From a virus, in IMG/VR virus record IMGVR_UViG_3300027365_000020, positions 1 to 51,284 of that record: a DNA stretch of 51,284 nucleotides; one strand, written 5' to 3'. Below are positions 3 through 35,518 of the stretch, one piece after another (the first letter of the stretch is position 1; the number at the start of each line of letters is the position of its first letter). Below the pieces are notes generated by a model. The model saw only the letters and a program-made list of their open reading frames with translations. It ran no database searches and was not told the DNA's origin. The position numbers and the translations under genes are program-made.

Positions 3-2015
3 TATTCTGAAGCTATGAAGACTAAGATGATAACCGGCAAAGGTTATTTCTGGTTTGATGATAAAGTCAATGCAAAGAATCCTCAATGGTATAAAGACAA
101 AGGACTCTCGGTAAAGTCAAGTCAACTCTGCGTAGCACCTGAAACTGTGGTCTTGACAGACCAAGGCCACGAGATCATTTCAGAGTTAGAAGGACAGATT
201 GTAAAAGTTTGGAATGGCGAGAGCTTTACAGACACAGTAGTACACAAAACAGGCGTTGACCAACAACTTGTTAAGGTGGTCACTGACTGTGGCTTTGAAT
301 TGGACTGTACGCGCTACCACAAATTCTACGTAATGGAAGGTTTTAGTCGTACAGGAAAAGTGGTAGAAAAACGTGCATGTGATCTGGTAGAGGGTGATAA
401 ACTCATCAAGCTCGACACACCTGTGATCCAAGGTGAGAAAGTATTGAAAAAAGCTTACCAGAACGGCTTCTATAGTGGTGATGGGTGTTGTGTGAAGGCC
501 AATTCCCGTGTTTATCTTTACGGGGATAAGAGAAAACTTTCTTATATGTTTACAGATACTCGGCAGTACGTCACTCAAGACGCTCAGGATAGGGAATATT
601 TCTATGTAGATGGGCTTGAAACAAAGTTCTTTGTACCTACTGCTGAGTATACTGTAGAGAGTCGTGTAGAATGGTTTGCGGGGTTGATGGACGCCGATGG
701 ATGTTTGTTGACTAACGGTAAATCTCAAACATTGCAGATTGCATCTACGCAGCCGGGGTTTTTAGAATCCGTACAGTTGATGCTTCAGACGCTAGGTATC
801 CAGTCCAAAGTAAAACACGCTAGGGATGCTGGTAAATATCCTCTCCCAGCGAATGATGGCACAGGGACTCTGAAAGAGTACGATTGTAAAAAAGTTGAAC
901 GTCTCTTGGTTAACGGTATGGGTATTGTGAAGTTGTTGAATATGGGCTTAAATCCACAACGTCTGAAACCTACCTCGCACATCCCTAACCGAGACGCTTC
1001 AAACTTTGTTAAAATTAAGGAGGTGATCGACGATGGGCGTGTAGATGATACGTACTGTTTCACTGAGTCTGAAAAAGGAATGGGTGTCTTTAATGGTATT
1101 CTGACAGGACAGTGCTCAGAGATAGCTCTCCATTCTGACGAGGAACATACCTTCACATGCGTACTGGCAAGCATGAACCTTGCAAGATATGACGAGTGGG
1201 CTGGAACAGATGCTGTCTATAATGCAATATTCTTCTTAGACGCGGTTTGTCAGGAATTTATCGAGCGTGCTAAGAATATTGAAGGTCTTGAGAAGGCTGT
1301 GCGGTTCACTCGGAAGTCTCGTGCATTAGGTTTGGGGGTGTGTGGTTATCACACGTATCTTCAACAGAACATGATGCCTTTTGGATCAATGGAAGCACAC
1401 TTCTTCAATATCAAGGCTTTCAAGTTTATTCGTGAAGAAGCTGAGAGAGCTACGGTTGATCTAGCAAAGCATTGGGGGGAACCTGAGTGGCTTAAAGGTT
1501 ACGGAAGAGCCAATACACATTTGATTGCAGTTGCTCCTACAAAATCAACTGCTTTGATTATGGGAGGCGTATCAGAAGGTATTAATCCAGATACCGCAAT
1601 GGTTTATACTCAAAGAACTCCTGCTGGCGAAGTTGATAGGGTTAATCCGGTACTTCTAAAACTAATGAAAGAACGTGGAGTGTATAATAAGCAAACAATG
1701 GAAAGGATTCGTGTGGATAACTTCGGATCAGTCCAAAATGAAGATTGGTTGACTGATGAAGAGAAGGAAGTGTTCAAGATTGCATTTGAAATCAATATGC
1801 ACGACGTGATTAGGTCCGCTTCAGTACGATCTAAGTACATTGATCAATGGCAATCTTTGAATCTATTCTTTGCTTCTGGAGATGACCCTAAGTACATTAA
1901 CGAGGTTCATAAACAAGCGTTTAATGATCCTGAAATCAAAGGTCTGTACTATGTATACTCTCGTGCTGGTATCCAAGCATCAGTAGACAAAGATCAGTGT
2001 TCGGCTTGTATGTAG
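3..2015 (+). CDS. nrdA: Ribonucleoside-diphosphate reductase large subunit, 3' part, intein-containing
   Basis: Class I RNR alpha chain, which reduces ribonucleotides to deoxyribonucleotides for phage DNA synthesis. The frame is open to the left window edge, so the Met at base 15 is internal and the N-terminal half is missing. The extein reads SSQL/CSEIAL around the splice point, matching the E. coli NrdA SNLCLEI block whose Cys439 becomes the thiyl radical. A second redox-type Cys follows in FTCVLASMNL. The C-terminus CSACM supplies the thiol pair that re-reduces the active site. An in-frame intein occupies 129-1112. The stop at 2013-2015 is followed by a strong terminator. The family call is firm; the 5' extent is unknown. 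Confidence 0.93.
   Translation, partial: YSEAMKTKMITGKGYFWFDDKVNAKNPQWYKDKGLSVKSSQLCVAPETVVLTDQGHEIISELEGQIVKVWNGESFTDTVVHKTGVDQQLVKVVTDCGFELDCTRYHKFYVMEGFSRTGKVVEKRACDLVEGDKLIKLDTPVIQGEKVLKKAYQNGFYSGDGCCVKANSRVYLYGDKRKLSYMFTDTRQYVTQDAQDREYFYVDGLETKFFVPTAEYTVESRVEWFAGLMDADGCLLTNGKSQTLQIASTQPGFLESVQLMLQTLGIQSKVKHARDAGKYPLPANDGTGTLKEYDCKKVERLLVNGMGIVKLLNMGLNPQRLKPTSHIPNRDASNFVKIKEVIDDGRVDDTYCFTESEKGMGVFNGILTGQCSEIALHSDEEHTFTCVLASMNLARYDEWAGTDAVYNAIFFLDAVCQEFIERAKNIEGLEKAVRFTRKSRALGLGVCGYHTYLQQNMMPFGSMEAHFFNIKAFKFIREEAERATVDLAKHWGEPEWLKGYGRANTHLIAVAPTKSTALIMGGVSEGINPDTAMVYTQRTPAGEVDRVNPVLLKLMKERGVYNKQTMERIRVDNFGSVQNEDWLTDEEKEVFKIAFEINMHDVIRSASVRSKYIDQWQSLNLFFASGDDPKYINEVHKQAFNDPEIKGLYYVYSRAGIQASVDKDQCSACM
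129..1112 (+). other. Intein with LAGLIDADG homing endonuclease domain, in RNR
   Basis: A 328-residue intein starting with Cys (CVAPETVVLTDQGH, block A) and ending NGILTGQ before the +1 Cys of the host protein. The block-B-like TRYHKFYV motif and two LAGLIDADG-type motifs (FYSGDG, and FAGLMDADG about 68 residues later) show a splicing domain plus endonuclease. The last residue is Gln, not Asn, and the one before it is Gly, not His. Atypical C-terminal Gln inteins are known in RNR proteins, and some still splice. The insertion places the RNR radical cysteine as the +1 nucleophile, so splicing should be needed for enzyme activity. Confidence 0.92.
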
Positions 2016-4718: not shown

Positions 4719-5312
4719 TTATTGAACAGATTCTTCTTGACCAAAAGCTTGGATTTCCTGAATAATAGGAAGATAATCATCAAGAACAGTTGCTGCATCT
4801 ACTTGTTCATGGATTCCACGACACCACGTAAAACATTTTTGAATATGGTTCGATACTGCTACACCAATTGATAAACCTTGATCGCGAGTCAATGTTGTCC
4901 ATGTACCGGGAGTTGCTTCGAAATCAATACTAACAAGATCAGGGTCATTATTAATAGATGCTACAAGTCCACTGATACGGTTTTGAGAATCAATTGAAGT
5001 ATCTACAAGATTTCCATCAGCAAGTGTAATCCCACCTTGCTCAACTTGCTTACGCTTCTTCCTTGCACGATCTTTGAACTCTTCTTTCATGATTTGATAG
5101 AAGGATTCTTCGGTAGTTTCATACATCCAATCTTCAGGTTCAAAAGTATCTTCAGCAATTCCGTAGAATGTCGGGATACCTGATTGGAACGAATCTTCAA
5201 TAGCAAATGTCGGGGAAATACCTTCAGGGTGTAGTGGGCCGTTCTTTGCTGGGGATTGTGAGACAGGTTCTTTAGTTTTTCTGTCGATATATGTGTAACG
5301 GATATATTTCAT
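4719..5312 (-). CDS. DUF4376-type protein, possible tail-fibre accessory
   Basis: A 197-aa protein. The N-terminus (MKYIRYTYIDRKTKEPVSQSP) resembles tail-fibre assembly-type proteins, and the C-terminal half (ERISG-like SQNRISGLVAS, PGTWTTLT, QKCFTWCRGIHEQ) has the DUF4376 pattern seen beside phage tail fibres. Its ATG overlaps the reverse transcriptase stop codon (ATGA), so it is translationally coupled to the DGR. A decayed duplicate lies at 2570-2982. A chaperone or accessory role for the diversified fibre is inferred from position, not shown. Confidence 0.65.
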   Translation of the reverse strand: MKYIRYTYIDRKTKEPVSQSPAKNGPLHPEGISPTFAIEDSFQSGIPTFYGIAEDTFEPEDWMYETTEESFYQIMKEEFKDRARKKRKQVEQGGITLADGNLVDTSIDSQNRISGLVASINNDPDLVSIDFEATPGTWTTLTRDQGLSIGVAVSNHIQKCFTWCRGIHEQVDAATVLDDYLPIIQEIQAFGQEESVQ

Positions 5313-6415
5313 TTCATCTCTCCTTGGTTTAGGACGATATTACGGTTACGATCAATTTCATAACCGTGTAATGATAGGTCGTGTAAAAGTCTATTGAGTA
5401 AATTGTATGAATTAGGTGCTTGTTTTATATAAGATATTGTGCAATTTATATCAGATTGCTCACCTCCGAATATGTTATCATAACACTTCCAATAAGTATT
5501 CTTCAGAGGGACCCTTCTGAAAGGGTATATAGTCTGACCTACAAAACTAACCCCTCTCTTTATAGGTTGTATGATAGTCTTCTTGTCGTTCAGTTCCACA
5601 CCTAAGTCATTTAAGGTAGGTTGTATCGCATGGTGTATTTCTATAAGATCGCGTGTAGTTTTACCTAAGAAAATAAAATCATCTACATAACGTATATACT
5701 TTTCCACCATCAATACGTGTTTGACAAATTTATCCAATACATCCATAAGTACATTAGCGAAGAACTGGCTTGTGAGATTTCCAATGGGTAATCCTCTGTT
5801 GCCAGAAGTCAATAGTAACCTCTTCCTTAAAGGGACTTCTTCCATTTCTTCTGGTGAAGAATTAAACACCACATTTTCTCTTGGGTCATGGTAGAGGATG
5901 TACCTAACCATACCCTTAACCCAATCATTAGGGAGTTTTGGTTCAATGATTCCCCACAGCACATCTTTATTTATCGACACAAAGAAATTCGCAAGATCAC
6001 ACTTCATATAATAATAGTCGCAATCCCAATTATTTGTGAATGATCTTATGTGCTTTTCCAATCTCTTTGCACCGTACAAAGTACCTCTTCCCGGAATACA
6101 AGCACAACTATCTGCCGTAAAGGAACGATTGAATTTGTCCTTAATGCGATTGTAAACGAGATGGTGGACTATTCTATCTCTAAAATCAGCAGCCCAAATT
6201 TCCCTTATTCTCGGTTTCTTTACTACAAAGCAAATAGAATACCCTATTCGATAATTTCCAGAAAGCAAGTCATTGTAAAGGTTGCATAAGTTATCTTCCA
6301 AGTTTAATTCAAAAAGAAGTGCGCTATCAGAATTTCTTTTGTTCTTTCTACAATCATAGTAGGCAGCGCACAATTCACTGAAAGTAATATCGCAAGGAGA
6401 TGGTTCTATAATCAA
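5309..6415 (-). CDS. DGR reverse transcriptase
   Basis: Reverse transcriptase that should copy the template RNA into mutated cDNA. Numbered from TTG at 6415 (368 aa): KCDLANFF at 138-145 (motif A, first catalytic Asp), IGNLTSQ at 211-217 (the SQ ending marks DGR enzymes; group II intron enzymes have SP) and RYVDDF at 242-247 (catalytic YxDD). There is no upstream in-frame ATG. TTG at 6415 is preceded by AAGGA at good spacing. A TTG at 6511 would give 400 aa but lies inside the template repeat without a ribosome site. The order fibre-avd-TR-RT is that of the Bordetella phage BPP-1 DGR. Confidence 0.93.
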   Translation of the reverse strand: MIIEPSPCDITFSELCAAYYDCRKNKRNSDSALLFELNLEDNLCNLYNDLLSGNYRIGYSICFVVKKPRIREIWAADFRDRIVHHLVYNRIKDKFNRSFTADSCACIPGRGTLYGAKRLEKHIRSFTNNWDCDYYYMKCDLANFFVSINKDVLWGIIEPKLPNDWVKGMVRYILYHDPRENVVFNSSPEEMEEVPLRKRLLLTSGNRGLPIGNLTSQFFANVLMDVLDKFVKHVLMVEKYIRYVDDFIFLGKTTRDLIEIHHAIQPTLNDLGVELNDKKTIIQPIKRGVSFVGQTIYPFRRVPLKNTYWKCYDNIFGGEQSDINCTISYIKQAPNSYNLLNRLLHDLSLHGYEIDRNRNIVLNQGEMK

Positions 6416-6444
6416 ATTGAAATCCTTTTCTATAATGTATTTTT

Positions 6445-6534
6445 GCGGACATAGTTCGAGTTCGTCTTGTTGTTGCTGTTCTGGTTGCCATTGTTGAAGT
6501 TCTGGTTCCAAGCGTTAGTCGAACTGTTCTGCGT
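6445..6534 (-). repeat. DGR template repeat (TR)
   Basis: A 90-bp sequence matching 7210-7299 at a constant offset of 765 bp. Read on the - strand it is 30 codons rich in AAC (11 AAC and 1 AAT), the classic TR design in which mutating A in AAC samples many residues without stop codons. All 14 differences from the variable repeat are at TR adenines (to G, C or T). Homology stops abruptly on the 6535 side. On the other side an A-rich run (6438-6444) could extend it by seven bases. It lies between avd and the reverse transcriptase gene and ends 30 bases before the preferred RT start. Confidence 0.95.
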
Positions 6535-6690
6535 CATGCGATCGCATTACATGTGCCAATCAACGGAACTTTATCACAGTAACCGTTAAGGACTGACTGT
6601 TAAGTCTTATCTGTCTTTCGAGAGGGATCACCAAAAATACTTGGTTCAGTGATAGCAGCAAATAACCACTACCAATCAGACCATTCCAGT

Positions 6691-7071
6691 TTAAGTTTTA
6701 TTTACATTGTTCGACTTCTTTTTAGTAGCGTTATACCATTTCCGACATTGATCTCTTACTGAAAGCAGAGGTTCAATAAGTCTCGCGTAAGCACTTTTCG
6801 GAATAATATTAACGTCCCTAGAAGAACGAATAACAACTAGTAGCACCTCTAAGTTGTCTTTAAGTTTCTCCAAAAACTCCATGCGTTTTTCAAGATTATT
6901 TTTAGTTGCATTGGCTTTCTGGATTAAGGTAATATTCTCGCTTGCAGTCAGACGTAACTCTTCACCAATAGTTCTCTTGAAATCCTTTCTGATATGTTTT
7001 GTCGTATGAAGAACTTCGATTAACATTTTATACTGGTCTTTATAAATATTAAGTTCATAATATTCAGACAT
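6691..7071 (-). CDS. avd: DGR accessory variability determinant (Avd-like)
   Basis: A 126-aa, lysine- and arginine-rich, all-helical protein whose pattern fits the Avd four-helix bundle: KHIRKDFKRTIGEEL, ENITLIQKAN, RMEFLEKLKDNLEVLLVVIRSSRD and a C-terminal KWYNATKKK. Avd forms a pentameric barrel that binds the RT and template RNA and is required for mutagenic retrohoming. Its position between the variable gene and the TR matches known DGRs. Identification rests on helix pattern and context. Confidence 0.87.
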   Translation of the reverse strand: MSEYYELNIYKDQYKMLIEVLHTTKHIRKDFKRTIGEELRLTASENITLIQKANATKNNLEKRMEFLEKLKDNLEVLLVVIRSSRDVNIIPKSAYARLIEPLLSVRDQCRKWYNATKKKSNNVNKT

Positions 7072-7109
7072 AAGAGGTACGCCCTTTGTTGTAATTGTTT
7101 AGATAGCAG

Positions 7110-7127
7110 GCTGGCATGTAAGCCAGC
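7110..7127. other. Hairpin downstream of the DGR target gene
   Basis: Perfect 6-bp inverted repeat GCTGGC/GCCAGC with a 6-base loop, between avd and the fibre gene. There is no T-tract on the - strand, so it is not a clear terminator. DGR targets often carry a hairpin just past the variable repeat that aids cDNA integration; this one is about 80 bp away, so the role is uncertain. Confidence 0.5.
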
Positions 7128-7180
7128 ACTGCAAGGTTTTAAGTTTTATGGGTGGGTATTAGCGTTCCACTACACTTCGT

Positions 7181-7205
7181 TTCGGTCACACCGCAACCCA
7201 CCGAA
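7181..7205. other. Inverted repeat at the end of the variable repeat
   Basis: TTCGGT (7181-7186) and ACCGAA (7200-7205) form a perfect 6-bp inverted repeat around a 13-base spacer spanning the fibre stop codon. It begins five bases after the variable repeat ends, where DGRs keep the initiation-of-mutagenic-homing region and its hairpin. Confidence 0.5.
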
Positions 7206-9348
7206 CAGCGCGGACAGAGAACGAGGGCGTCTTGCTGGTGCTGTTCTGGTTGCCATTGTAGAAGCGCTGGTACCAAGCGTTAGCCGAACTGTACTGCGAC
7301 GAAGACCAATAATAACTTGTAGAAAAATCTTCCCCTCCTCCGCTTCGAAAAATAGCAACGCTTGTTTGGGAAGGATTATTGCTGGTATAAGCGGCACCGA
7401 CTGGATCACTCTGAGGGTTAGTACCATTGCCTCCGGTTTCCGGCCCATAACTGCTGTTAACGTAGTTACTTTGAGTAGTTGGTTTCAAATAACGGTAACA
7501 AATCTCAAGTTCGTCAGCACTAGGTAAGTGCCAATCAGTATACCCATTGATGGTCAAGTTATTGCAAAAATTAGCAGCAGGGTGTACGGAAGCACCTGCG
7601 GAAATCATTGCAGCAGTATTTGACTTACCATCATAAGTAGAGTCAGGGCCGGATGTTGTTGTATTAGAAGCCTTCCAAGCAAGAGAACTATTTTCACCAC
7701 CTTGAGATTTCGGAGCAACAACAAGCGCATAAGTAGTACCGTTTACTACAATATTTGCACCTGCATAGTAACCGCCGCCATAAGCCTGCCCAGCACTACT
7801 AGAATCGAATTTAAAGAACTGTGCTTCAGTAGTGAAAGTAGAAGTTCCCCAAGCACTCACTCCAAGCTGACTTCCATAATATCTTACTCGGATTTGGTAC
7901 TCAGTAGATTCGGCTAAATTTCCAGAAGGTACATCAATAGATGTTAGGTTTATAGTGTCATTATAACTTGACCACACAAGAGTATTGTCACTTGTTTGGC
8001 GAATTTCCCAATCAGATGATTGGTGAGTCTCAGAAACAGGACTTGAGAAAGCACTTGAAGTAATTGTAAACCCATCTCCAACATCTGTAGCACCATTGGC
8101 CGGTGAAGTAACACTTGGAGTGTTAGGGGCATTAGCAGTTGTGAATTGTATAGCTTGCGACCACGCGGATGTTCCCAACGAAGCGCCTGTATACCTCACA
8201 TGAACATAGTAAACTGTCCCAGCAGAAAGTTCAGGGGTAACTTGCCATTGAGTAAGGTTACTTGTATCAGTATAAGAGCTAGCAACAATATTTGAGAAAC
8301 CACTATCGGTAGCAACTTCCCAATCAGATGATTGGTGAGTATCACCAAAATCACTTGGAGTTGTTTTAAATGATGTGGATGTGAAAGTTACATTAGTCGT
8401 GATTGCAGTGGAACCATTCGAAGGATACGTCAAAGACGGACGATCTACTTGAGATGCTCCAATTGCAATATTGAAATTATAATCAACGCCTGATTTTGTA
8501 ACAGTAAGTACAAGAGAACCTGTTGAACCTGAGTCAACAGTAATAGATACTAAATCATCTGTAATTGATACAGACCCAGTGGCAGTAGCGTCAAATGTAG
8601 CGTTGACTTGATATGTGTCAAATGAAGAATAGTTCGTAATTTGGTAATTCTCCACAGTACCTGCTGTTACAACAGAATTACCCTGTAAAGCTACACCAGC
8701 AGTAGTTGCCTTAATACCATCTGAGATAGATTTAAGCTGGATAGGGTTGACATAACGTGTTGCACCAGTGCCATTATCAATATCTTGTTGACGTGCTTTT
8801 TGAACAGCGCCTTTAGCATCAACTGTAGCATCGGGAAGGAAAATAGAGCCGATAGTTCCTGACTTAATGCTATCTGCTTTAAGATTTTCAACAGCAGTTT
8901 TAAGTTGACCTGCAACGACAAATCTAGCACCTTCAGTGCCTACATCGATATCTTGTTGGGTTGCTTTAAGAACAACGCCTGCATAGTCTTCTGTAGCAAG
9001 TTTCTTGATAGTGTCAAAATCAAAAGGTTTTTCCCAAATGTTTTGATCGTCAAACTTGGGGTTAATACCTGAATTCGTCTGCAATGCCCTCCAGATTTCA
9101 CCGTCTTCATCTTGCACGTAAGAAGTATTTGCCTGATACTCAGTATTAGCATCCCAAGCTGAAATACCATGCTGAACAATATGAGCAATAGCTTGTTCAT
9201 TTTTATTCTGGAGGTAGTTTTCAAACTGGAAAGGTGGGATTTCAGCAGTCCACCCTTGTTGCTTTTTAGTATCTGAAGGTTCTACAATTTCCCCGCCAGA
9301 TGCCCAAAGATTTTCTGTCAAACCACTAGGCTTACTAATATCTGCCAT
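7186..9348 (-). CDS. Tail fibre / receptor-binding protein, DGR target
   Basis: A 720-aa protein. The N-terminus (GGEIVEPSDTKKQQGW, then EIPPFQFENY and GISAWDANTEYQANTSYVQ) is a phage tail-fibre attachment type. The middle has two similar beta-sandwich repeats with the shared phrase THQSSDWE, fibronectin-III-like. The last 190 residues are a DUF1566/Lcl-type C-type-lectin fold (ALVVAPKSQGG, GYTDWHLPSADELE, YYWSSSQYSS, SVRAVRWVAV). The variable repeat encodes residues 684-713, in the ligand-binding part. The diversified tip should change host receptor specificity. The gene is last of the tail set, after the DUF2612 baseplate gene. Confidence 0.93.
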   Translation of the reverse strand: MADISKPSGLTENLWASGGEIVEPSDTKKQQGWTAEIPPFQFENYLQNKNEQAIAHIVQHGISAWDANTEYQANTSYVQDEDGEIWRALQTNSGINPKFDDQNIWEKPFDFDTIKKLATEDYAGVVLKATQQDIDVGTEGARFVVAGQLKTAVENLKADSIKSGTIGSIFLPDATVDAKGAVQKARQQDIDNGTGATRYVNPIQLKSISDGIKATTAGVALQGNSVVTAGTVENYQITNYSSFDTYQVNATFDATATGSVSITDDLVSITVDSGSTGSLVLTVTKSGVDYNFNIAIGASQVDRPSLTYPSNGSTAITTNVTFTSTSFKTTPSDFGDTHQSSDWEVATDSGFSNIVASSYTDTSNLTQWQVTPELSAGTVYYVHVRYTGASLGTSAWSQAIQFTTANAPNTPSVTSPANGATDVGDGFTITSSAFSSPVSETHQSSDWEIRQTSDNTLVWSSYNDTINLTSIDVPSGNLAESTEYQIRVRYYGSQLGVSAWGTSTFTTEAQFFKFDSSSAGQAYGGGYYAGANIVVNGTTYALVVAPKSQGGENSSLAWKASNTTTSGPDSTYDGKSNTAAMISAGASVHPAANFCNNLTINGYTDWHLPSADELEICYRYLKPTTQSNYVNSSYGPETGGNGTNPQSDPVGAAYTSNNPSQTSVAIFRSGGGEDFSTSYYWSSSQYSSANAWYQRFYNGNQNSTSKTPSFSVRAVRWVAV
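7210..7299 (-). repeat. DGR variable repeat (VR)
   Basis: Partner of the TR at 6445-6534 and encodes residues 684-713 of the fibre. Compared with TR there are 14 substitutions in 90 bp, all at TR adenines. Template AAC codons have become TAC, CGC, ACC, AGC, CCC and TTC, while non-A bases are unchanged. The invariant GTCCGC at its 3' end is the likely start of the homing region. Confidence 0.95.
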
Positions 9349-15021: not shown

Positions 15022-16619
15022 TTATCTTTCAGTAATTGGATCGTTACCAGATGTAGTGTTGAACATATCATTAACAACTCTCAAAACTTCTGGTTCAATA
15101 CTTGGAATATCCCCGCCATCAATTGTAATGTTAATGTCGCCATACATATTTTTATTAGTAATTGGGGATTGTGTTGTACCAGTTTGTGATTTAAGATAAG
15201 CATCAATATTCTTATCTGTAATCATTTGATAGGGTTTTTGTTGAGACTTCAACCAAGCATCAATATTCTTATCTGTAATCATTTGATAGGGTTTTTGTTG
15301 AGACTTCAACCAAGCATCAATATTCTTATCTGTAATCATTTGATAGGGTTTTTGTTGAGACTTCAACCAAGCATCAATATTCTTATCTGTAATCATTTGA
15401 TAGGGTTTTTGTTGAGACTTCAACAAAGCATCAATATTCTTATCATTAATCATTTGATAGGGTTTTTGTTGAGACTTCAACCAAGCATCAATATTCTTAT
15501 CTGTAATCATTTGATAGGGTTTTTGTTGAGACTTCAACAAAGCATCAATATTCTTATCATTAATCATTTGATAGGGTTTTTGTTGAGACTTCAACCAATC
15601 ATCAATATTCTTATCATTAAGAACACCAAAAGACTTGTTTGTAGACTGTGAAAGCGCTTGTTGACTAAAGTTATCAATAACAGTTCTCAGTACATCAGGA
15701 TTGAGATTATAACGTTCAGTCAAATTACCAAGCTTCTCACCGTTACTTAGTGCATCAAGAACTTGACCAACGGTTAAAGCACCTTTCCCTGTCTGGATTT
15801 CATAATTTCTTACAGAATCTTTTTGAAGCATTGCTCCTGCAATCGACATCAAAACACTCGCTGCAATACCTATGATTGTTACCCGCAAGGCACCTTTTGC
15901 GAATGCTCCCATCATACTACCAGCAGCGGATGCTTTACCCATCGTTGGAACTTTAGTTTTACCGAACACTTTCCCAATCCCTTTTATCGAAGAATATAAT
16001 GAAGCAGCGGTAGCTGCCCAGATAGCCATCTTCGTAAAGAAGTCATTCCAGCTATCAAACCCATTATCAAGTGTATCAGTAACGGCAGAAATTGCAAGTG
16101 GGTATAAGAAGAATACTGCAAAGAGTTTTCGCAGAGGTCTGAATGCAGCTATTACCGCTGCTGTAATAAGTTTTAATTCTGTATTGAACTTGAAACCTTT
16201 GTCAGTTACAAACCCAAGTTTTTCTCCAAGTTCACCAAACAGTTCAATAGGTGCTTCAAGAGCAAGTCCGAGATATTCTGATGCTTTGCCCAACATGATC
16301 CAAACAGGTTCAGCTTTTTGGATTGCATCAGACATGGTATTAAAAAGATCACGAACAGTCTTATCAAAACCAGATTGGTTGAACGTAGCATTAGCTAGCC
16401 AGACATTATTTTTGAAACGATTAATTGCAGAGTTAGTATTAGTTAATGATGCGGCAAGCTGGTCACCGTTGTTTGCTAACTTTAATAACTCAATACTTAG
16501 TTTTGGAAATAACTCTTCTGCTGTAACTTGACCTAACGAAGTAGCTTTACGCAGTTCAGCAGTAGTCATTCCCATTGCTCTAGCGGCAGCCGCGTAAGCG
16601 CCGGGCAATCTTTCACCAA
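15022..16619 (-). CDS. Tape measure protein, second exon (C-terminal part)
   Basis: Exon 2 of the tape measure. Taken with exon 1 (17691-18885) it gives an in-frame 930-aa protein, and the joined sequence ELSQQ/FGERLPGAYAAAARAMG restores a motif conserved in phage tape measures. The exon has hydrophobic segments (AVFFLYPLAISAV; TIIGIAASVLMSIAGAML) typical of tape measures that cross the host membrane, then eight 19-residue repeats of the type KNIDAWLKSQQKPYQMI. A Met at 16608 is internal, not a real start. Confidence 0.9.
15204..15632. repeat. 57-bp tandem repeat inside the tape measure gene
   Basis: Copies begin every 57 bases at 15204, 15261, 15318, 15375, 15432, 15489, 15546 and 15603. 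Bases are almost identical, differing mainly at one Trp/Leu codon and one Thr/Asn codon. Each copy encodes 19 residues and keeps frame, so copy number could change tail length or lumen content without breaking the gene. Confidence 0.95.
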
Positions 16620-17690
16620 CGAAAAAATGTTCAACAGGGGTCGCTACACCTCTGCCAGTTCTCTTATGAACTTCTACGTATTTCTACGTAGTCCAGATCA
16701 TATCTTACTCTACAGCATAACCTGTTTAGAGCCTCACCATTTCCCCTATCAATCGCTTATAGGGTACGTGCATTGCACTGACCGTTGGACGTTTTACTTA
16801 CCAATCATACTCACATGAAATAGAAGAATGACATTTTCTTCTTTTGATATCTTCTATCTGATGGATAGTTACAGATAGATTATTTGACATACTGTAGACT
16901 TCTACAGAAGAATACCCTTCCACAAATTTTCTACAAATCCACCGAACAGTATCTTCAGATAATTTATTACTTCTTTGTCTAATCGGGATATCTGGTAAAT
17001 CTTGTAACAAATATTTCCAATTAGTTTTATTTTTAATGCAAGTCAAAGTACCACTGCCTATATCATACTCGCGTCTTATGTCAATATTCCGAGCACCTTC
17101 ATAAAGTCTCCAATAGATACTCAGTACATCCTCTTCAGATAACCTGTTTCTACCGTTACTTTCACCTCTAGGGATATTCTTCAAACCTGTTGAATAAGCA
17201 TGTCTTTGGTTATCCCCAGAAGTAACCCATTCCAAATTAGAAAAGTGGTTATTGAGTTTATCTCCGTCTTTATGGTTGACGTATTCTAAACCCTCTGGAT
17301 TATCTATATATGCTTTAGCTACAAGACGGTGAACTAAGAAATTTTTATTTTCACAGTTCTCCATGACAAGACAAACTCGATAATATTTACTAGTATCAAG
17401 TTTTTGCTTAAGCTCACGCAAACCTTTTCCTTTGGAATTGGTATAAACAACTCCGTTTTCAGTGATATAGTAGTACTTTGACTCTTCAATTCTCTTCATG
17501 TGTAATCTCCTACTAATATTCGGTAGATTGGTAAGCAACTTCGCTGCTGATCATCCAATCTTGACAATTTTTAAACCTTCACGCTTATATTCGCATATTA
17601 CGTTGTGGTTTGTCAAGCTCTAAGGATGTTCCAGACAGTTAGATGAGTTATTCACTAGTATATTTCTACACTAGGCAGCCTGTAAAATTG
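16620..17690 (-). ncRNA. Group I intron in tape measure gene
   Basis: About 1071 nt. The - strand shows conserved group I core elements: a GATGATCAGCAGCGAAG-type Q element near 17540-17555 and an AAGATATGATC S-like element near 16690-16700. Boundaries are proposed from exon T / intron-terminal G and restoration of the tape measure frame. It contains an HNH gene at 16798-17499. Confidence 0.85.
16798..17499 (-). CDS. Intron-encoded HNH homing endonuclease
   Basis: A 233-aa nuclease. An N-terminal NUMOD4-like part (YYYITENGVVYTNSKGKGLR) is followed by the HNH core FLVHRLVAKAYIDNPEGLEYVNHKDGDKLNN, then NLEWVTSGDNQRHA; the C-terminal half looks like DNA-binding helices. Such enzymes cut intronless alleles to spread the intron. 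The ATG at 17499 has AGGAG upstream; a longer frame to 17538 lacks one. Confidence 0.9.
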   Translation of the reverse strand: MKRIEESKYYYITENGVVYTNSKGKGLRELKQKLDTSKYYRVCLVMENCENKNFLVHRLVAKAYIDNPEGLEYVNHKDGDKLNNHFSNLEWVTSGDNQRHAYSTGLKNIPRGESNGRNRLSEEDVLSIYWRLYEGARNIDIRREYDIGSGTLTCIKNKTNWKYLLQDLPDIPIRQRSNKLSEDTVRWICRKFVEGYSSVEVYSMSNNLSVTIHQIEDIKRRKCHSSISCEYDW

Positions 17691-18885
17691 ACTGTTGTGA
17701 AAGTTCCTCGGCGTTAACGACTCCTTTAGACTGCATCTGCACAAGGCTTCGAAAAACACCTTTAACATCTTCAGCACTTAAATTCAAAACTTTAGAATAA
17801 CTAGATACGGCTTCAAAAATCCTTCTAGTTTCTTTACCTTGTAAGTTTGAGTCTTTAGTCGCTGCGGTTAATGCAGTAAATCCTTGTGAAGCGTCTGTCA
17901 AAGAAATACCAAGTCTTTGCGAAGTCCGGATGAGGTATTCTAGCTCTTTCCTACCTTGTTCAACACCTCCAGTAGCAGCACTAAGTCCTTGTTGGACCCC
18001 TACAAATTCCTGATAAGACCTTGTAGAGGCATATCCACCAATAGATACTGCACCTGCCCCCAAAACAGCATCAGAATGTAACGCAGAAATTAATCCATGA
18101 TTACCACGTTTAACACTTGCCGCAGAACGTGTAGCAGAACTTGTCTCAGCCATTTGCAACTGACGATATTTTGCAATAAGACCTGTAAGGATTCGTTGAC
18201 GTTCTTCGAGAGTAACGTTCCCCTGTTTGTATTGCTGATTGATAAAGGAATATTGCTGCCTGAGATTCTTTAGTTCAAAACTCGTCTTATCATATTTCCG
18301 AGCGATACCATCAATGCTTCTCTGAAGTTGTTTAGCAGCAGCTTGTGCCTTCTTCCGCATCTGTTCTTCAGCAGAAAATAGTTGGCGAGATTCTTTAGAA
18401 GCTTGCTTGCGATTATTCAGTATCTTATTATCAGCAGCTTTAGACTCTGCTACTCGCTTCTCTTCAGCTTGTTTAAACCATTGTTGAAGTCTTTCCTCTT
18501 CACCGAATTGACCAGACTTCATTTGTCGGTATCTTTCAGCAATAGGTCTTAAAAGTTCATTACGTTTTTCAGCAGAGATTCTATTCTGTTTAAACTGCTT
18601 ATTGATCCTTTGGTAGTCTTCCCTGACTTGTTGTAATGAACCACCTAACTTATCATACCTTTTTTGAATACTTGCTACAGAAGCTTCTTGTTTCTTTAAG
18701 GATTTAGTAGAAGACTTTACAGATTTATCAGTGCCTTTAAAAGAATCATTAACAGTCTTAGCAGTACCTGTCATTGATTGCTTTATGGACTTTAGCTGAT
18801 TCTCAAACTGTTTAAGTTTTCCATCTTGGATGTTAAAACCCAGAGTAGCAAATAATTTTGCGATTTCCTGGCCAGCCATAAGCAA
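17691..18885 (-). CDS. Tape measure protein, first exon (N-terminal part)
   Basis: N-terminal 398 residues of the tape measure, which sets tail length. It has long, charged coiled-coil stretches (RYDKLGGSLQQVREDYQRIN; a second similar block near residues 195-235) and then the tape measure domain GQSALTR-like ASTRSYQEFVGVQQGLSAAT and SQGFTALTAATKDSN. It runs into the intron after SQQ, where unspliced RNA would stop 20 bases later. It sits just after the G/GT chaperones. Confidence 0.9.
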
Positions 18886-21397: not shown

Positions 21398-22590
21398 CGT
21401 TTATGTTCAGCATGGATCGCTAATCCATACCCGTTAGCTTAACTACCTTTCTACTATTTCTCGGTGCCAACCGTGGTGTTCTCTTTTACACCAATTTTGT
21501 ACATCTGTATTTTTGATATTTCCGTAGTAGTTTGCGGCGGCTACAGAAGTACCAAATTTTAATCCTTCGGGCGATACAAACCAAAATTTACCCCGAGGCT
21601 TAACCGCTAAGTATTCTTCGTTTCTCTCTGCGTTGAGGATAGCGTCTTCTGACCTTTTCCTAGATGAATCCTGCCTGTTTTTAACAGAGACCTTCTGCGC
21701 TTTACGCATATGTTCTTTCTGTTTGGGGCAAGTAGCCATCTTAGCATTGTGCTTTACGAGAGATGCCCTGCGTTTTTCCGAAGGACCGTTTATGGCTAAA
21801 TTATTAAGAGCGATCTGCCTAACTCTGTCTAAATGACCAGACTCAACGTTACGTCTTCCCAATTTACTAGCCCAAGCACGCTGCTCCTCGTTGTTAGCGA
21901 GATGTCGTATTTCATCTAACCAACCACTCTCTACACAACGCTTACCGTGGATCGGTCCGTAAATTTTACCGACTTTAGACATGTGACCAGAATTTCGATT
22001 CTTTGCTCCGCCGATTAATCCTGCCATCTGGCATAGGGCAAACTTCTTATCATCTTCTATTGCACTCATCATTCTCAAGCACATTAAGTCTTGAGGTCTT
22101 CCATACGCCTTCCAAAGAAGCCTATGTGCAAAAGTGTGCTGACGATAAGTTAACTTCACCAAATTACTATCTTCATCCGTACCGCCGCAATGCTTCGGGA
22201 TGATGTGGTGTTTTTCAATATAAGTCCCTTCCGGGATATGTTGGCACTTCCAATTCTCAATGAATTTGAAATAGAGTTTTTCGTAGTTCAATTTATCCCC
22301 TTGTTAAGCTAACTGCTTACAGTTTCCTGTAAGACCAGACTATATCTTAGCCTTCAATATTATTGATAAGGCTCCCTGCACTTCGGATCGCTTGATCCTA
22401 CGTAATAGTCGTTGAACCTTCCCTTACGGGCTTGGCTGCTGATTACCCAATCCGACTTGTTTTTGAACTCTCACGCTCACTTCTAAAGATTAATTCTGTA
22501 GAAATCACGTTGTAGTCAAGTTGGCTATTAGGGCGTCCCAGCAATTCACAGGGTTTTCACTGAAAGATTTCTCTCTCAGGCGACCAATTG
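21398..22590 (-). ncRNA. Group I intron in sheath gene
   Basis: About 1193 nt. The - strand has a GAATTGCTGGGA-type P element (near 22535-22550), AATCAGCAGCCAAGC (Q, near 22432-22447) and AAGATATAGTC (S, near 22331-22341). The exon ends in T and the intron in G; removal restores the sheath frame. It encodes an HNH protein. Confidence 0.9.
21443..22291 (-). CDS. Intron-encoded HNH homing endonuclease
   Basis: A 282-aa nuclease with the HNH core YIEKHHIIPKHCGGTDEDSN, then LVKLTYRQHTFAHRLL near residues 24-60. The middle is a set of short basic repeats (GHMSKVGK, ESGWLDEIRHLA, ESGHLDRVRQIA), and the C-terminus (SPEGLKFGTSVAAANYYG) is a NUMOD-like DNA-binding helix. It lies in the 3' part of the sheath intron. 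Confidence 0.9.
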   Translation of the reverse strand: MNYEKLYFKFIENWKCQHIPEGTYIEKHHIIPKHCGGTDEDSNLVKLTYRQHTFAHRLLWKAYGRPQDLMCLRMMSAIEDDKKFALCQMAGLIGGAKNRNSGHMSKVGKIYGPIHGKRCVESGWLDEIRHLANNEEQRAWASKLGRRNVESGHLDRVRQIALNNLAINGPSEKRRASLVKHNAKMATCPKQKEHMRKAQKVSVKNRQDSSRKRSEDAILNAERNEEYLAVKPRGKFWFVSPEGLKFGTSVAAANYYGNIKNTDVQNWCKREHHGWHREIVER

Positions 22591-23337
22591 ATCGAGGAAT
22601 TCAGAATTTACTACACGGCCTTCTGCAAAGATTGTCCGTCCGCCAGTTGGCTCATAAGTATTGTAACCTTTGCCATAATCGTACTTAGAACCCTTAAGAG
22701 TCAGACTTTGAGTAGTGGTAAGGTTGGAAGGTGTTACACCTGAAACTTCTTTGAATTTCCAAGTAGTAGAGCCGGGGTCTTTTGGTGCTTGCAGGCCAAT
22801 AAATGCACACTCAGGATACTCAGTTGGGTCTTCGGCATAAACAAGGAATGTCCTTGCATAGTTAAGACCTTGAAGAGTTGAACCAATGTCTGAAGAATCT
22901 TGTGCATCAGTTGCGTCAGTACCATTGTAAGATGCGCCATAAATACGTGACTCAGTTTCAACTACAGCGGCCAATGCTTCAATATCAGCAGGATCGTGAC
23001 TATAAGTAGTTACAAAATAGAAGTCAGAGTCTTGCTCTTTAATAGCATTGTATGCTTCGGTAATCGTTTCTGTTGCAGAAGTATCGTGGAAACCGATCTT
23101 AATATAAGTAGGTTCGAGTTCTTGACCAAAGAACCTAAGCGCTGCAATATACTCGGGGTCAGTTTCTGTAAAGTCATTCAGAACTGCTTCAGCAGAACTA
23201 TAAGTTCTCACACGATCAGTTGCACTAAGAACACCTGCGGTAGAACCAATAAAAAGTGGTGTACCAAAACCTTGACGGGATACACCGCGAGTTTCACGAG
23301 AAATATTAATCTCGATAATGTCTTTAACGCTTGCCAT
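22591..23337 (-). CDS. Tail sheath protein, first exon
   Basis: N-terminal 249 codons of a DUF3383-family sheath protein: SVKDIIEINISRETRGVSRQGFGTPLFIG, RVRTYSSAEAVLNDF, AALRFFGQELEP. The contractile sheath surrounds the tube and drives DNA injection. Unspliced RNA would add QLVA and stop inside the intron. Confidence 0.9.
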
Positions 23338-30729: not shown

Positions 30730-31224
30730 TTATACTGACCATCTGTTTTGGGAATACATTGCTGAAGGGTCTATTGAGATATTTGTGGGGGATACAATGG
30801 ATTTGGAAAGGTTATTAAAAGCATCACTTGTAGCATCAACTTGGTCATCGTGACCTTTACCGTCTCCTACAAAGTTCTCCAGCTCCCTTACATATTCATC
30901 ATTCCAATCACCTTTTACAATCTTTATAAGACCAGCTTCAGCGGCTGCTGAGAACGGTTCAAAGCGTTCTAACTTGGATTTAGTGGTTTTACACTTTTTG
31001 AACTTAAATCCTGCTAGGTTCTTTGCATGGTCTTCAAAGACTGCCTTTCCCGCCCCGCCAGCGTCTAGTGGTATTCCCACTGTACACTTAGTACCATCAA
31101 TCCCTGCATATTTACGCATCATCTGCTTAACGCCAGAAGGTCTTTTACGATCTCTAACAGCGTGCATAATGTAGTAATAACCATCTGTAGCGAGACGAAT
31201 CTTTACACCTGCTGTATAATCTGG
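30730..31224 (-). CDS. terL: Terminase large subunit, exon 4 (nuclease C-terminus)
   Basis: Last exon, 165 codons: PDYTAGVKIRLATDGYYYIM, then PLDAGGAGKAVFEDHAKNLAG and the RNase H-fold nuclease motif GDGKGHDDQVDATSDAFNN. With exon 3 it reads SEVNPD/PDYTAGVKI, the family consensus. The four exons total 1413 bases (470 aa) in frame. Confidence 0.92.
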   Translation of the reverse strand, partial: PDYTAGVKIRLATDGYYYIMHAVRDRKRPSGVKQMMRKYAGIDGTKCTVGIPLDAGGAGKAVFEDHAKNLAGFKFKKCKTTKSKLERFEPFSAAAEAGLIKIVKGDWNDEYVRELENFVGDGKGHDDQVDATSDAFNNLSKSIVSPTNISIDPSAMYSQNRWSV

Positions 31225-31478
31225 CAAGAGTTCAGTGCAGTTCGCTAAACTACACCCGGTACGAAACCAGCTTATGGTTTCCCATAAGATCGGATCATAT
31301 CATCATCCTCTAAGGATGCCCCCCGTTTCGATTCCGCTTGGAACCTACGTGATGACCTCTGAACGTTCAAGATTCTTAGAATCAAGCTTCGCTGCTGATT
31401 AGCATATCTGAAAAAGACTTAGCTTTCCAGCAATTAAAGGGGTTATTCGATATACGTTACCGTATAAAGCGACCATTG
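31225..31478 (-). ncRNA. Group I intron A in terL
   Basis: About 254 nt without an ORF. The - strand has AATTGCTGGAAAGC (P), AATCAGCAGCGAAGC (Q), GTTCAGAGGTCATC (R) and GATGATATGATCC (S-like). The last exon base is T and the last intron base is G. Confidence 0.88.
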
Positions 31479-32023
31479 ATCGGGATTAACTTCTGATGGC
31501 TCAGTCGAGGCGGTATCCCATGCTCTCATCTCTGCTTTAGCTGGGGGCACATCTTTTATATCAACAAATTCACACCAGTCCTTTTGAAAATATGTACCTG
31601 AATTTGCTTTCACATTCCAATTACCAAGGTAGAGTGCTTCACGCTCTACGCGAGTAAGTGCTTTAAGGTTAGCTTCATATGCCGGGTCAATCTTCTTGTT
31701 ATCCTTAACTGTAGCATTTATAAAAGTAAAGGACTTAGGCATGGAATCTTCTCCCCAAATCCTTTCAGCTTCTTCTTTAGTATCGTACCAATGTGTATCT
31801 TCACCTCGCCTTACAAACCACCTTATAACACCGCATCTACTCTCGATAGGAAATCCTGTTTCTGGATCAATCCACCAGTCGACAAGTTTTCTTACCCATC
31901 CCTCGGACACTGGATTACATGTTGCGCGAATGTACGGTTTCACCCCTGTACTTGAGCGGTTACGAGATAAAAGATACCAGAACATTCGTTGGGTAAAGCC
32001 TGTTAACTCATCAAAAATGATTA
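31479..32023 (-). CDS. terL: Terminase large subunit, exon 3
   Basis: Begins within the Walker B region, IIFDELTGFTQRMFWYLLSR (the conserved acid pair DE), and continues to the first nuclease aspartate in MRAWDTASTEP. Exon 2 to exon 3 joining gives GSQVPLIIFDELTGFTQ, close to the typical QFPYIGFDELTHFT. Confidence 0.92.
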
Positions 32024-32223
32024 CAATTTGGACTATATCACCATCCTATTAGGATGCCGGACGCTAATGGCGTATTACATGATAAGATCGTATCATACCG
32101 CCTAGTCTCTGCACCTTCCTTATACGCTTATAAGGCTTGGCTCAGGATTGTCTCACTTAGAGGTTTCCCCTGAATTCATCCAGTTATTCGATAAAGATTA
32201 CTCTTTAAAGCCGCTAATCAATA
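32024..32223 (-). ncRNA. Group I intron B in terL
   Basis: A 200-nt minimal intron. The - strand carries CAATCCTGAGCCAAGCC (Q) and GATGGTGATATAGTCC (S). It shares a run of at least 20 bases near its 5' end (AAAGAGTAATCTTTATCGAA) and a hairpin (GGCATCCTAATAGGATG) with intron C, so the two are recent relatives. Confidence 0.88.
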
Positions 32224-32529
32224 ACGGAACCTGTGAACCTTTAAAGTTTTCCAAATCTTTCTCTAATTCAATACCAGCGAATTGAACACGAGCATTGGAG
32301 TCTTTAAAAACCCACTTCATTGTTGAGTCATAAGCTTCTGCATCTGGGAAATTAGAAAATATATTAAAACTTTCGTCCCATGGTCCTCCCGGATAGCGGT
32401 GTTCATTCTTTGTACGACGAAGAAAGAAAGTGAAGAAATTTGGAACGTTTTTATGTCTAAGACATTCTAAAAGAAGACTGAAGGTTTTGCCTGAACCTGC
32501 GCCACCACCGTAGAGACATATCAGATAAT
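32224..32529 (-). CDS. terL: Terminase large subunit, exon 2 (Walker A)
   Basis: About 102 codons with the ATP-binding P-loop GGGAGSGKT, then FSLLLECLRHKNVPNF, FFLRRTKNEHRYPGGPW and ELEKDLENFKGSQVP. It has no start codon of its own and would be missed by ordinary gene calling. Confidence 0.92.
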
Positions 32530-32751
32530 CCCGATATTTCTACCGGACCTCGACTATATCATCATCCTATTAGGATGCCGGACGCTATTCATGTATTACA
32601 CGCAAAGATCGTTGCGAACCATGTAGTCTGTGAACCTTCCTTATACGCTTATAAGGCTTGGCTGCTGATTGGCATAGGTTAATAAACCCTTAGCTTTCCA
32701 GCAATTCATCCGGTTTTCGATAAAGATTACTCTTTAAAGGGACTATGTTCT
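32530..32751 (-). ncRNA. Group I intron C in terL
   Basis: A 222-nt intron. The - strand has GAATTGCTGGAAAGC (P), AATCAGCAGCCAAGCC (Q) and GATGATATAGTC (S). Boundary assigned so that ETEAD joins YYLICLYGGGAGSGKT in frame; the exact 3' splice base is less certain than for introns A and B. Confidence 0.85.
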
Positions 32752-32818
32752 AATCCGCTTCTGTCTCAAGGAACATTGTTTGCTTACCGGGTTGCGGCTC
32801 TAATCTTTCATATGTCAA
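32752..32818 (-). CDS. terL: Terminase large subunit, exon 1 (short first exon)
   Basis: A 22-codon exon encoding (M)TYERLEPQPGKQTMFLETEAD, the conserved terminase N-terminus just before the Walker A segment. The start is TTG at 32818 with GGAGG eight bases upstream; it overlaps the last 11 bases of the nuclease gene. Without splicing a stop follows at once. Confidence 0.85.
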
Positions 32819-35356: not shown

Positions 35357-35431
35357 TGGTGGGACCGACAGGTAATGCTCCTGAATCTTTCCGGTTATGA
35401 GCCAGACCGCTTTACTTTAAGCTACAGTCCC
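35357..35431 (-). tRNA. tRNA-Met (CAT)
   Basis: Acceptor GGGACTG/CGGTCCC with one G-U pair, discriminator A and encoded CCA; D stem GCTT/AAGC; anticodon stem TCTGG/CCGGA around CTCATAA, anticodon CAT. The T loop lacks the usual TTCRA, so it is somewhat degenerate. It could also be Ile (k2C), which cannot be told from sequence. Confidence 0.7.
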
Positions 35432-35432
35432 G

Positions 35433-35518
35433 TGGTGAGGGTGGTGGGCCACGATCCCACACGCCATTTCGGCAAGAGATTTTAAGTCTCTCATGTCTAC
35501 CAATTCCATCACACCCTC
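35433..35518 (-). tRNA. tRNA-Leu (TAA)
   Basis: Acceptor GAGGGTG/CACCCTC, discriminator A and encoded CCA; typical Leu D arm (ATGGAATTGGTAGACA); anticodon stem AGAGA/TCTCT around CTTAAAA, anticodon TAA; long variable arm TGCCGAAATGGCG; T stem GTGGG/CCCAC. One base separates its CCA from the next tRNA, so the pair is processed from one transcript. Confidence 0.9.

What the first reader, a model, noticed from the sequence alone, without database searches (positions are those of the whole stretch)
5309..9348. Complete diversity-generating retroelement acting on a phage tail fibre
Seen: fibre gene with a C-terminal DUF1566/lectin-like domain, avd-like gene, template repeat and a reverse transcriptase with YVDD and the DGR-type GNLTSQ motif, in the BPP-1 order. 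TR and VR differ at 14 of 90 positions, all at template adenines. Known: this pattern is unique to adenine-mutagenic retrohoming. Inferred: the phage varies fibre residues 684-713 to change receptor choice, with up to 12 AAC/AAT codons as targets.
Basis: partly seen in the sequence, partly recalled or inferred. Interest (0 to 1): 0.95.

Follow-up and report, generated by a model that had tools for sequence, protein, structure and literature searches.

The report
Phage tail-fibre diversity-generating retroelement
This phage carries a complete, well-preserved copy of a known machine (a diversity-generating retroelement) that rewrites the tip of its tail fibre, and two sister phages show the same rewriting of their fibre although no such machine can be found in the sequence held for them.

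Summary
Fibre (7186-9348), avd (6691-7071), template repeat (6445-6533) and reverse transcriptase (5309-6415) lie on the minus strand in BPP-1 order. TR and VR differ at 13 of 89 positions (14 of 91 extended), all at template adenines and none at 56 other positions. The RT has the DGR motif GNLTSQ and YVDD, matches the solved BPP-1 RT, and groups with DGR RTs away from group II introns (100/100). The fibre tip is an Lcl-type lectin domain. So this is a new member of a known kind.

Corrections: the RT probably starts at TTG 6415, just after the TR; the TR/VR 3' exact match is only 7 bp (median 29 in relatives); the BPP-1 GRNA hairpin is absent, as in nearly all relatives of this RT.

Unexpected: two sister phages (L217, a 72.8 kb near-complete record, and L218) carry a homologous fibre whose VR differs between them at 19 sites, none in third codon positions and mostly at TR-adenine positions: the DGR fingerprint. 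Neither record holds an RT, Avd or TR; different HNH-endonuclease genes occupy the slot. Either the DGR core was lost recently or it acts in trans; this is unresolved.

The parts
5309..6415 (-). DGR reverse transcriptase, 368 aa from the probable TTG start at 6415 (open frame reaches 6511, inside the TR)
   Evidence: phrog_1423 E 2.5e-90; PDB 8ub7 RT E 5.7e-27; GNLTSQ and YVDD motifs; tree; start codon and SD
6445..6533 (-). Template repeat (TR), 89 bp; extends to 6535 if one more A>T difference is counted; ends 29 nt before the probable RT start
6691..7071 (-). avd, accessory variability determinant, 126 aa
   Evidence: phrog_3206 'Avd protein of DGR' E 5.8e-16; bAvd 24.8 bits, below the Pfam cut-off; 26-31% identical to Avd of Magia, QDWS and Haboob phages
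7186..9348 (-). Tail fibre (DGR target), 720 aa
   Evidence: tail-fibre PHROGs at the N-terminus, Ig-like repeat and Lcl_C
7201..7689 (-). C-terminal Lcl_C lectin-like domain of the fibre (residues 554-716)
   Evidence: Pfam PF07603 E 2.4e-11; AlphaFold model pLDDT 84; only significant PDB fold match is Legionella Lcl C-terminal domain 8q4e, TM 0.43/0.59
7210..7298 (-). Variable repeat (VR), fibre codons 684-713
7151..7202 (-). Inverted repeat GGTGGGT/ACCCACC (arms 7196-7202 and 7151-7157) flanking the fibre stop codon; conserved in sister phages with one G-C to A-T compensatory change; possible target-site structure
   Evidence: chance about 0.09 in the window alone; the GRNA-loop hairpin of BPP-1 type is absent
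4719..5312 (-). DUF4376 gene directly downstream of the RT; marks the far border of the exchangeable slot shared with sister phages

Best explanation
A complete diversity-generating retroelement of a contractile-tailed phage. Shown: fibre with lectin tip, avd, TR and RT lie together in BPP-1 order, and VR equals TR except at adenines. Inferred from the BPP-1 system: the TR transcript is copied by the Avd-RT complex with errors opposite adenines, the cDNA replaces the VR, and the 12 AAC/AAT codons vary without creating stop codons. This gives phage progeny different fibre tips and so different host-surface binding. Activity was recent relative to ordinary drift, because no non-adenine position differs.
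For: TR/VR: 14/14 changes at template A, 0/56 elsewhere. RT in the DGR clade with branch support 100/100 and DGR motif in place of the group II QG motif. The DGR RT structure 8ub7 is the best PDB match. Avd profile. Lcl-type lectin tip. Related loci show the same design, with conserved scaffold residues and variable adenine-coded residues. A contig from another metagenome, 99.95% identical over 7981 bp, stops 42 bp before the VR, as expected if the VR is mixed in the population.
Against: No population reads were available, so present activity is not shown. The 3' exact TR/VR run is 7 bp, against 19 or more in all relatives whose 3' end aligns cleanly, and the RT has a long branch (1.19); either could mean weakened function. 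No GRNA hairpin after the VR. The contig stop near the VR may be an ordinary assembly break.
Confidence: 0.95

Rival explanations
1. A DGR that has recently lost function: the TR lost its 3' end (the part encoding AVR in relatives), so cDNA can no longer enter the VR well, and the VR is a recent fossil.
For: 3' exact run of 7 bp versus a median of 29; long RT branch; sister phages have lost or lack the core.
Against: RT and avd are open with catalytic motifs intact; zero non-A differences between TR and VR. In BPP-1, identity of 8 bp or more suffices to complete homing, though at the upstream end (PMC3240598).
Confidence: 0.15
2. A duplicated lectin exon fragment with A-biased differences produced by something else (selection, another mutator) and an unrelated RT such as a retron or defence RT.
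For: NCBIfam's best hits for the RT are group II and retron models.
Against: Those hits are far below their cut-offs and NCBIfam showed no DGR RT hit; tree, motif and best solved structure all place it with DGR RTs; the same TR/VR design occurs in related loci.
Confidence: 0.01
3. Chance similarity of two AAC-rich stretches.
For: AAC-rich repeats are low in complexity.
Against: 0 of 56 mismatches at non-A positions; the next best place in the record has 24 non-A mismatches; hypergeometric 2e-7.
Confidence: 0.001

Closest known systems
Bordetella phage BPP-1 DGR (mtd-avd-TR-brt)
   Same: Gene order, adenine-only TR/VR differences, Avd, C-terminal lectin-like target in a tail fibre, tail-module location.
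   Different: RT about 27% identical; TR 89 bp versus 134; TR lies 29 nt from the RT start versus 144 nt; 7-bp 3' exact run versus 21; no GAAA-loop hairpin after the VR.
DGRs of Burkholderia phage Magia, Shewanella phage QDWS and Pseudomonas phage Haboob
   Same: Closest cultured relatives of the RT (about 48% identical) and Avd; shared TR scaffold.
   Different: There the DGR lies in a non-tail region with recT or integrase genes nearby and short lectin targets; here it lies in the tail module with one long fibre.
Fibres of sister phages L217 and L218 (IMG/VR)
   Same: 62-63% identical fibre with a DGR-style VR and a shared 3' flank; same gene order around it.
   Different: No RT, Avd or TR found in the records; an HNH_3 endonuclease gene in the slot, different in each.
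Legionella pneumophila Lcl C-terminal domain
   Same: Same fold as the fibre tip by profile and model.
   Different: A bacterial surface adhesin; only moderate structural overlap (TM 0.43/0.59).

Membership tests
Diversity-generating retroelement | RT of the DGR clade with the GxxxSQ motif and YxDD | tested here: met
Diversity-generating retroelement | TR/VR pair with differences confined to template adenines | tested here: met
   14/14 at A, 0/56 elsewhere
Diversity-generating retroelement | VR in the C-terminal ligand-binding part of a C-type-lectin-fold protein | tested here: met
   Lcl_C; model and Lcl match
Diversity-generating retroelement | Avd or other accessory factor | tested here: met
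   phrog_3206 E 5.8e-16; Pfam bAvd below cut-off
Diversity-generating retroelement | Mutagenic retrohoming activity | not testable with these tools
   Needs reads or a homing assay; indirect support only
BPP-1-type phage DGR target site | GC-rich hairpin with GRNA loop 4-34 bp after the VR (PMC3240598) | tested here: not met
   Scan finds it in BPP-1 but not here and in almost none of the related loci; a longer inverted repeat with one compensatory change is present instead
BPP-1-type phage DGR target site | Long 3' TR/VR homology with GC-only stretch (IMH) | tested here: not met
   3' exact run is 7 bp, TGTCCGC
Group II intron RT | QGxxxSP motif and grouping with maturases | tested here: not met
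   TIGR04416 81.7 bits versus cut-off 300

The most novel reading that the evidence does not exclude
In this phage family the DGR core (avd-TR-RT) is an exchangeable module in a slot after the fibre gene that can be replaced by homing-endonuclease genes, while the diversified fibre target stays; phages without the core may have their fibres diversified in trans by the core of a co-infecting relative or of the host.
Probability: 0.25. Interest if true: 0.7.

Novelty: new member of a known kind. Interest (0 to 1): 0.42.

Why it matters
The DGR itself is ordinary. What could matter is the comparison with its sister phages. They offer a natural case of fibre tips with a clear DGR fingerprint in phage records that contain no DGR enzymes or template, with homing-endonuclease genes in the vacant slot. 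If confirmed by reads, it would show whether DGR function is shared among phages of a population or is gained and lost as a module, and it makes the question of trans-diversification in nature testable. [quoted passage not shown] Roux et al. [quoted passage not shown]

Tried and rejected
1) An apparent nucleotide-invariant TR core (TTCAACAATGGCAACCAGAAC) in the related loci was an artefact: the first scan used the peptide QQWQPEQQ, which is the TR read in the RT frame. An independent degenerate scan gave AAT at the key codon in only 25 of 119. 2) RT read from TTG 6511, so that the TR encodes the RT N-terminus: rejected in favour of TTG 6415 because relatives align from about residue 37, the frame over the TR differs among relatives, and there is a good ribosome-binding site. 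3) Loss of the GRNA hairpin as a special defect of this element: rejected, since nearly all loci of this RT clade lack it. 4) Exact scans for VR variants or near copies in viral contigs: none. 6) Retron and DRT outgroups for the tree were not obtained; those families were excluded only by low profile scores.

Full report
Observation. On the minus strand of this 51,284-base IMG/VR phage record lie, in order, a tail fibre gene (7186-9348), avd (6691-7071), a template repeat (6445-6533) and a reverse transcriptase (5309-6415 or to 6511). The TR and VR (7210-7298) align without gaps; 13 of 89 positions differ, or 14 of 91 if the match is extended by two bases, and every difference is at a template adenine. 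None of the 56 non-adenine positions differs; the hypergeometric chance is 2e-7. The eleven changed codons all change the amino acid. Within the TR the adenines lie in first and second codon positions only, in 12 AAC/AAT codons among others. The next best TR-like place in the record has 24 non-adenine mismatches, so there is one TR and one VR.

The enzyme. The RT matches PHROG 1423 (E 2.5e-90), Pfam RVT_1 and, as best solved structure, the reverse transcriptase 8ub7 (E 5.7e-27), which I take from my own knowledge to be the BPP-1 DGR RT. It has GNLTSQ where group II RTs have QGxxxSP, and YVDD. A maximum-likelihood tree separates it with BPP-1, BalMu-1, ANMV-1 and other DGR RTs from five group II RTs and one phage retron-type RT with 100/100 support, and groups it with RTs of Burkholderia phage Magia, Shewanella phage QDWS and Pseudomonas phage Haboob and related metagenome contigs. 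Its end branch is long (1.19). NCBIfam shows no DGR RT hit, and its group II, retron and DRT hits are all far below cut-off. Avd is below the Pfam cut-off but matches the PHROG Avd profile (E 5.8e-16) and is 26-31% identical to the Avd proteins of those phages.

Start of the RT. The listed ORF starts at TTG 6511 inside the TR. In relatives the alignment begins at about residue 37, the reading frame across the TR differs among relatives, and TTG 6415 has AAAGGA seven bases upstream, so I place the start at 6415, 29 nt after the TR. In BPP-1 this gap is 144 nt.

The target. The fibre has a tail-fibre N-terminus, an Ig-like domain and a C-terminal Lcl_C domain. An AlphaFold model of the last 184 residues (mean pLDDT 84; the other four models ranged from 45 to 72) has one significant PDB match, the C-terminal domain of Legionella Lcl (E 2.5e-4, TM 0.43/0.59). 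In 27 aligned target domains W145, W156, F160, G163, Q165, R177, A178 and R180 (domain numbering) are invariant while the adenine-coded residues vary.

Relatives. 54 IMG/VR loci encode RTs of 31-60% identity (best segment), most 45-51%. Most have one to four VRs with differences almost wholly at template adenines. In Magia, QDWS and Haboob the cassette lies outside the tail module, near recT or integrase genes, with short lectin targets. Here it lies in the tail module with one long fibre. Two local features differ. The 3' exact TR/VR run is 7 bp (TGTCCGC), whereas all relatives whose 3' ends align cleanly have 19 or more, median 29 over the set; the part of the TR that encodes AVR in relatives is missing. 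And no hairpin with a GRNA loop, shown to be needed in BPP-1 (PMC3240598), follows the VR; the same scan finds the BPP-1 hairpin, but almost no locus of this RT clade has one, so its absence is a trait of the clade.

Same-family phages. The baseplate gene finds L215, a 7981-base contig from another metagenome, 99.95% identical to 15320-7340; it ends 42 bp before the VR and at its other end inside a tandem repeat. This is what VR microdiversity would do to an assembly, but it is not proof. L217 (record G001, 72,839 bases) and L218 (G002, 50,141 bases) carry full fibre homologues, 62-63% identical. Between L217 and L218 the fibre VR differs at 19 sites: 10, 9 and 0 in codon positions 1, 2 and 3, with no synonymous-only codon among 12. 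The rest of the fibre has 34, 26 and 101, with 88 of 131 codons synonymous-only. By my arithmetic from those proportions, no third-position change in 19 has a chance near 1e-8. Over the 91 bp TR range, 17 of 20 differences fall at positions that are adenine in the window TR (Fisher p 2e-6). Ordinary selection on a receptor-binding tip could give amino-acid changes but not this confinement to template adenines and NNC codons; these VRs were written by a DGR.

Yet no RT (PF00078; a profile of DGR RTs with all filters off), no Avd and no TR (pattern; base-by-base scan) is found in either record; the window served as positive control in each of these searches. In the slot between the fibre and the DUF4376 gene, where the window has avd-TR-RT, L217 and L218 have different HNH_3 endonuclease genes, although the flanking DNA of the two is about 92-98% identical. 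G001 begins and ends inside the tape-measure gene and holds matches to window genes all the way round, so it is probably complete except for a small gap there; G002 lacks about 22 kb. A non-coding stretch after the fibre stop codon is conserved between the window and both sisters, with an inverted repeat GGTGGGT/ACCCACC in the window and GATGGGT/ACCCATC in the sisters, one compensatory change. On its own the repeat is not significant in any one sequence (p 0.07-0.13), and the two sisters are nearly identical there, so it is a lead only.

Interpretation. The window element is a complete DGR and most likely works as in BPP-1: error-prone reverse transcription of the TR at adenines and replacement of the VR, giving variant fibre tips. 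That is inferred from anatomy and established DGR biology; adenine-only differences without any drift show that it worked recently. Change of host range is inferred, not tested. For the sister phages there are two readings: the core was present until recently and was replaced by HNH genes, leaving fossil VRs; or the fibres are diversified in trans by a core elsewhere (co-infecting relative, host, or the small unsequenced part). Trans supply of avd, TR and brt works in the laboratory with BPP-1 (PMC3240598). The data do not separate these.

Verdict. Observation confirmed, interpretation supported, a new member of a known kind. The element alone would deserve about 0.3; the sister-phage comparison raises it.

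Noticed in passing
window 31271-32762 (-): Three group I introns (31271-31505, 32009-32233, 32530-32762) lie in the terminase large-subunit region, whose coding sequence is in pieces (30730-31227 and 31443-31985 match terL).
   Followed up: partly
window 21443-23337 (-): A fourth group I intron (22316-22600) lies between the tail sheath piece (22576-23337) and a homing-endonuclease-like ORF (21443-22291).
   Followed up: partly
window 15-2015 (+): Ribonucleotide reductase alpha subunit with an in-frame LAGLIDADG intein; its N-terminal half is cut off by the left end of the record, so the record is incomplete.
   Followed up: partly
L217:13151-13898 and L218:16909-17628: Different HNH_3 endonuclease genes occupy the slot between fibre and DUF4376 in two sister phages, where the window has avd-TR-RT.
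   Followed up: yes
window 15022-18885 (-): The tape-measure region is split into several ORFs and holds 57-bp tandem repeats (about 15198-15615); L215 ends there and G001 begins and ends in the same gene.
   Followed up: no
window 35357-35518 (-): Two tRNA genes, Met (CAT) and Leu (TAA).
   Followed up: no
L001-L054 TRs: In many related loci an ATG inside the TR (ACAATGGCAACC) is in frame with the RT, so the RT may start within its own template repeat; the frame differs in other relatives.
   Followed up: partly
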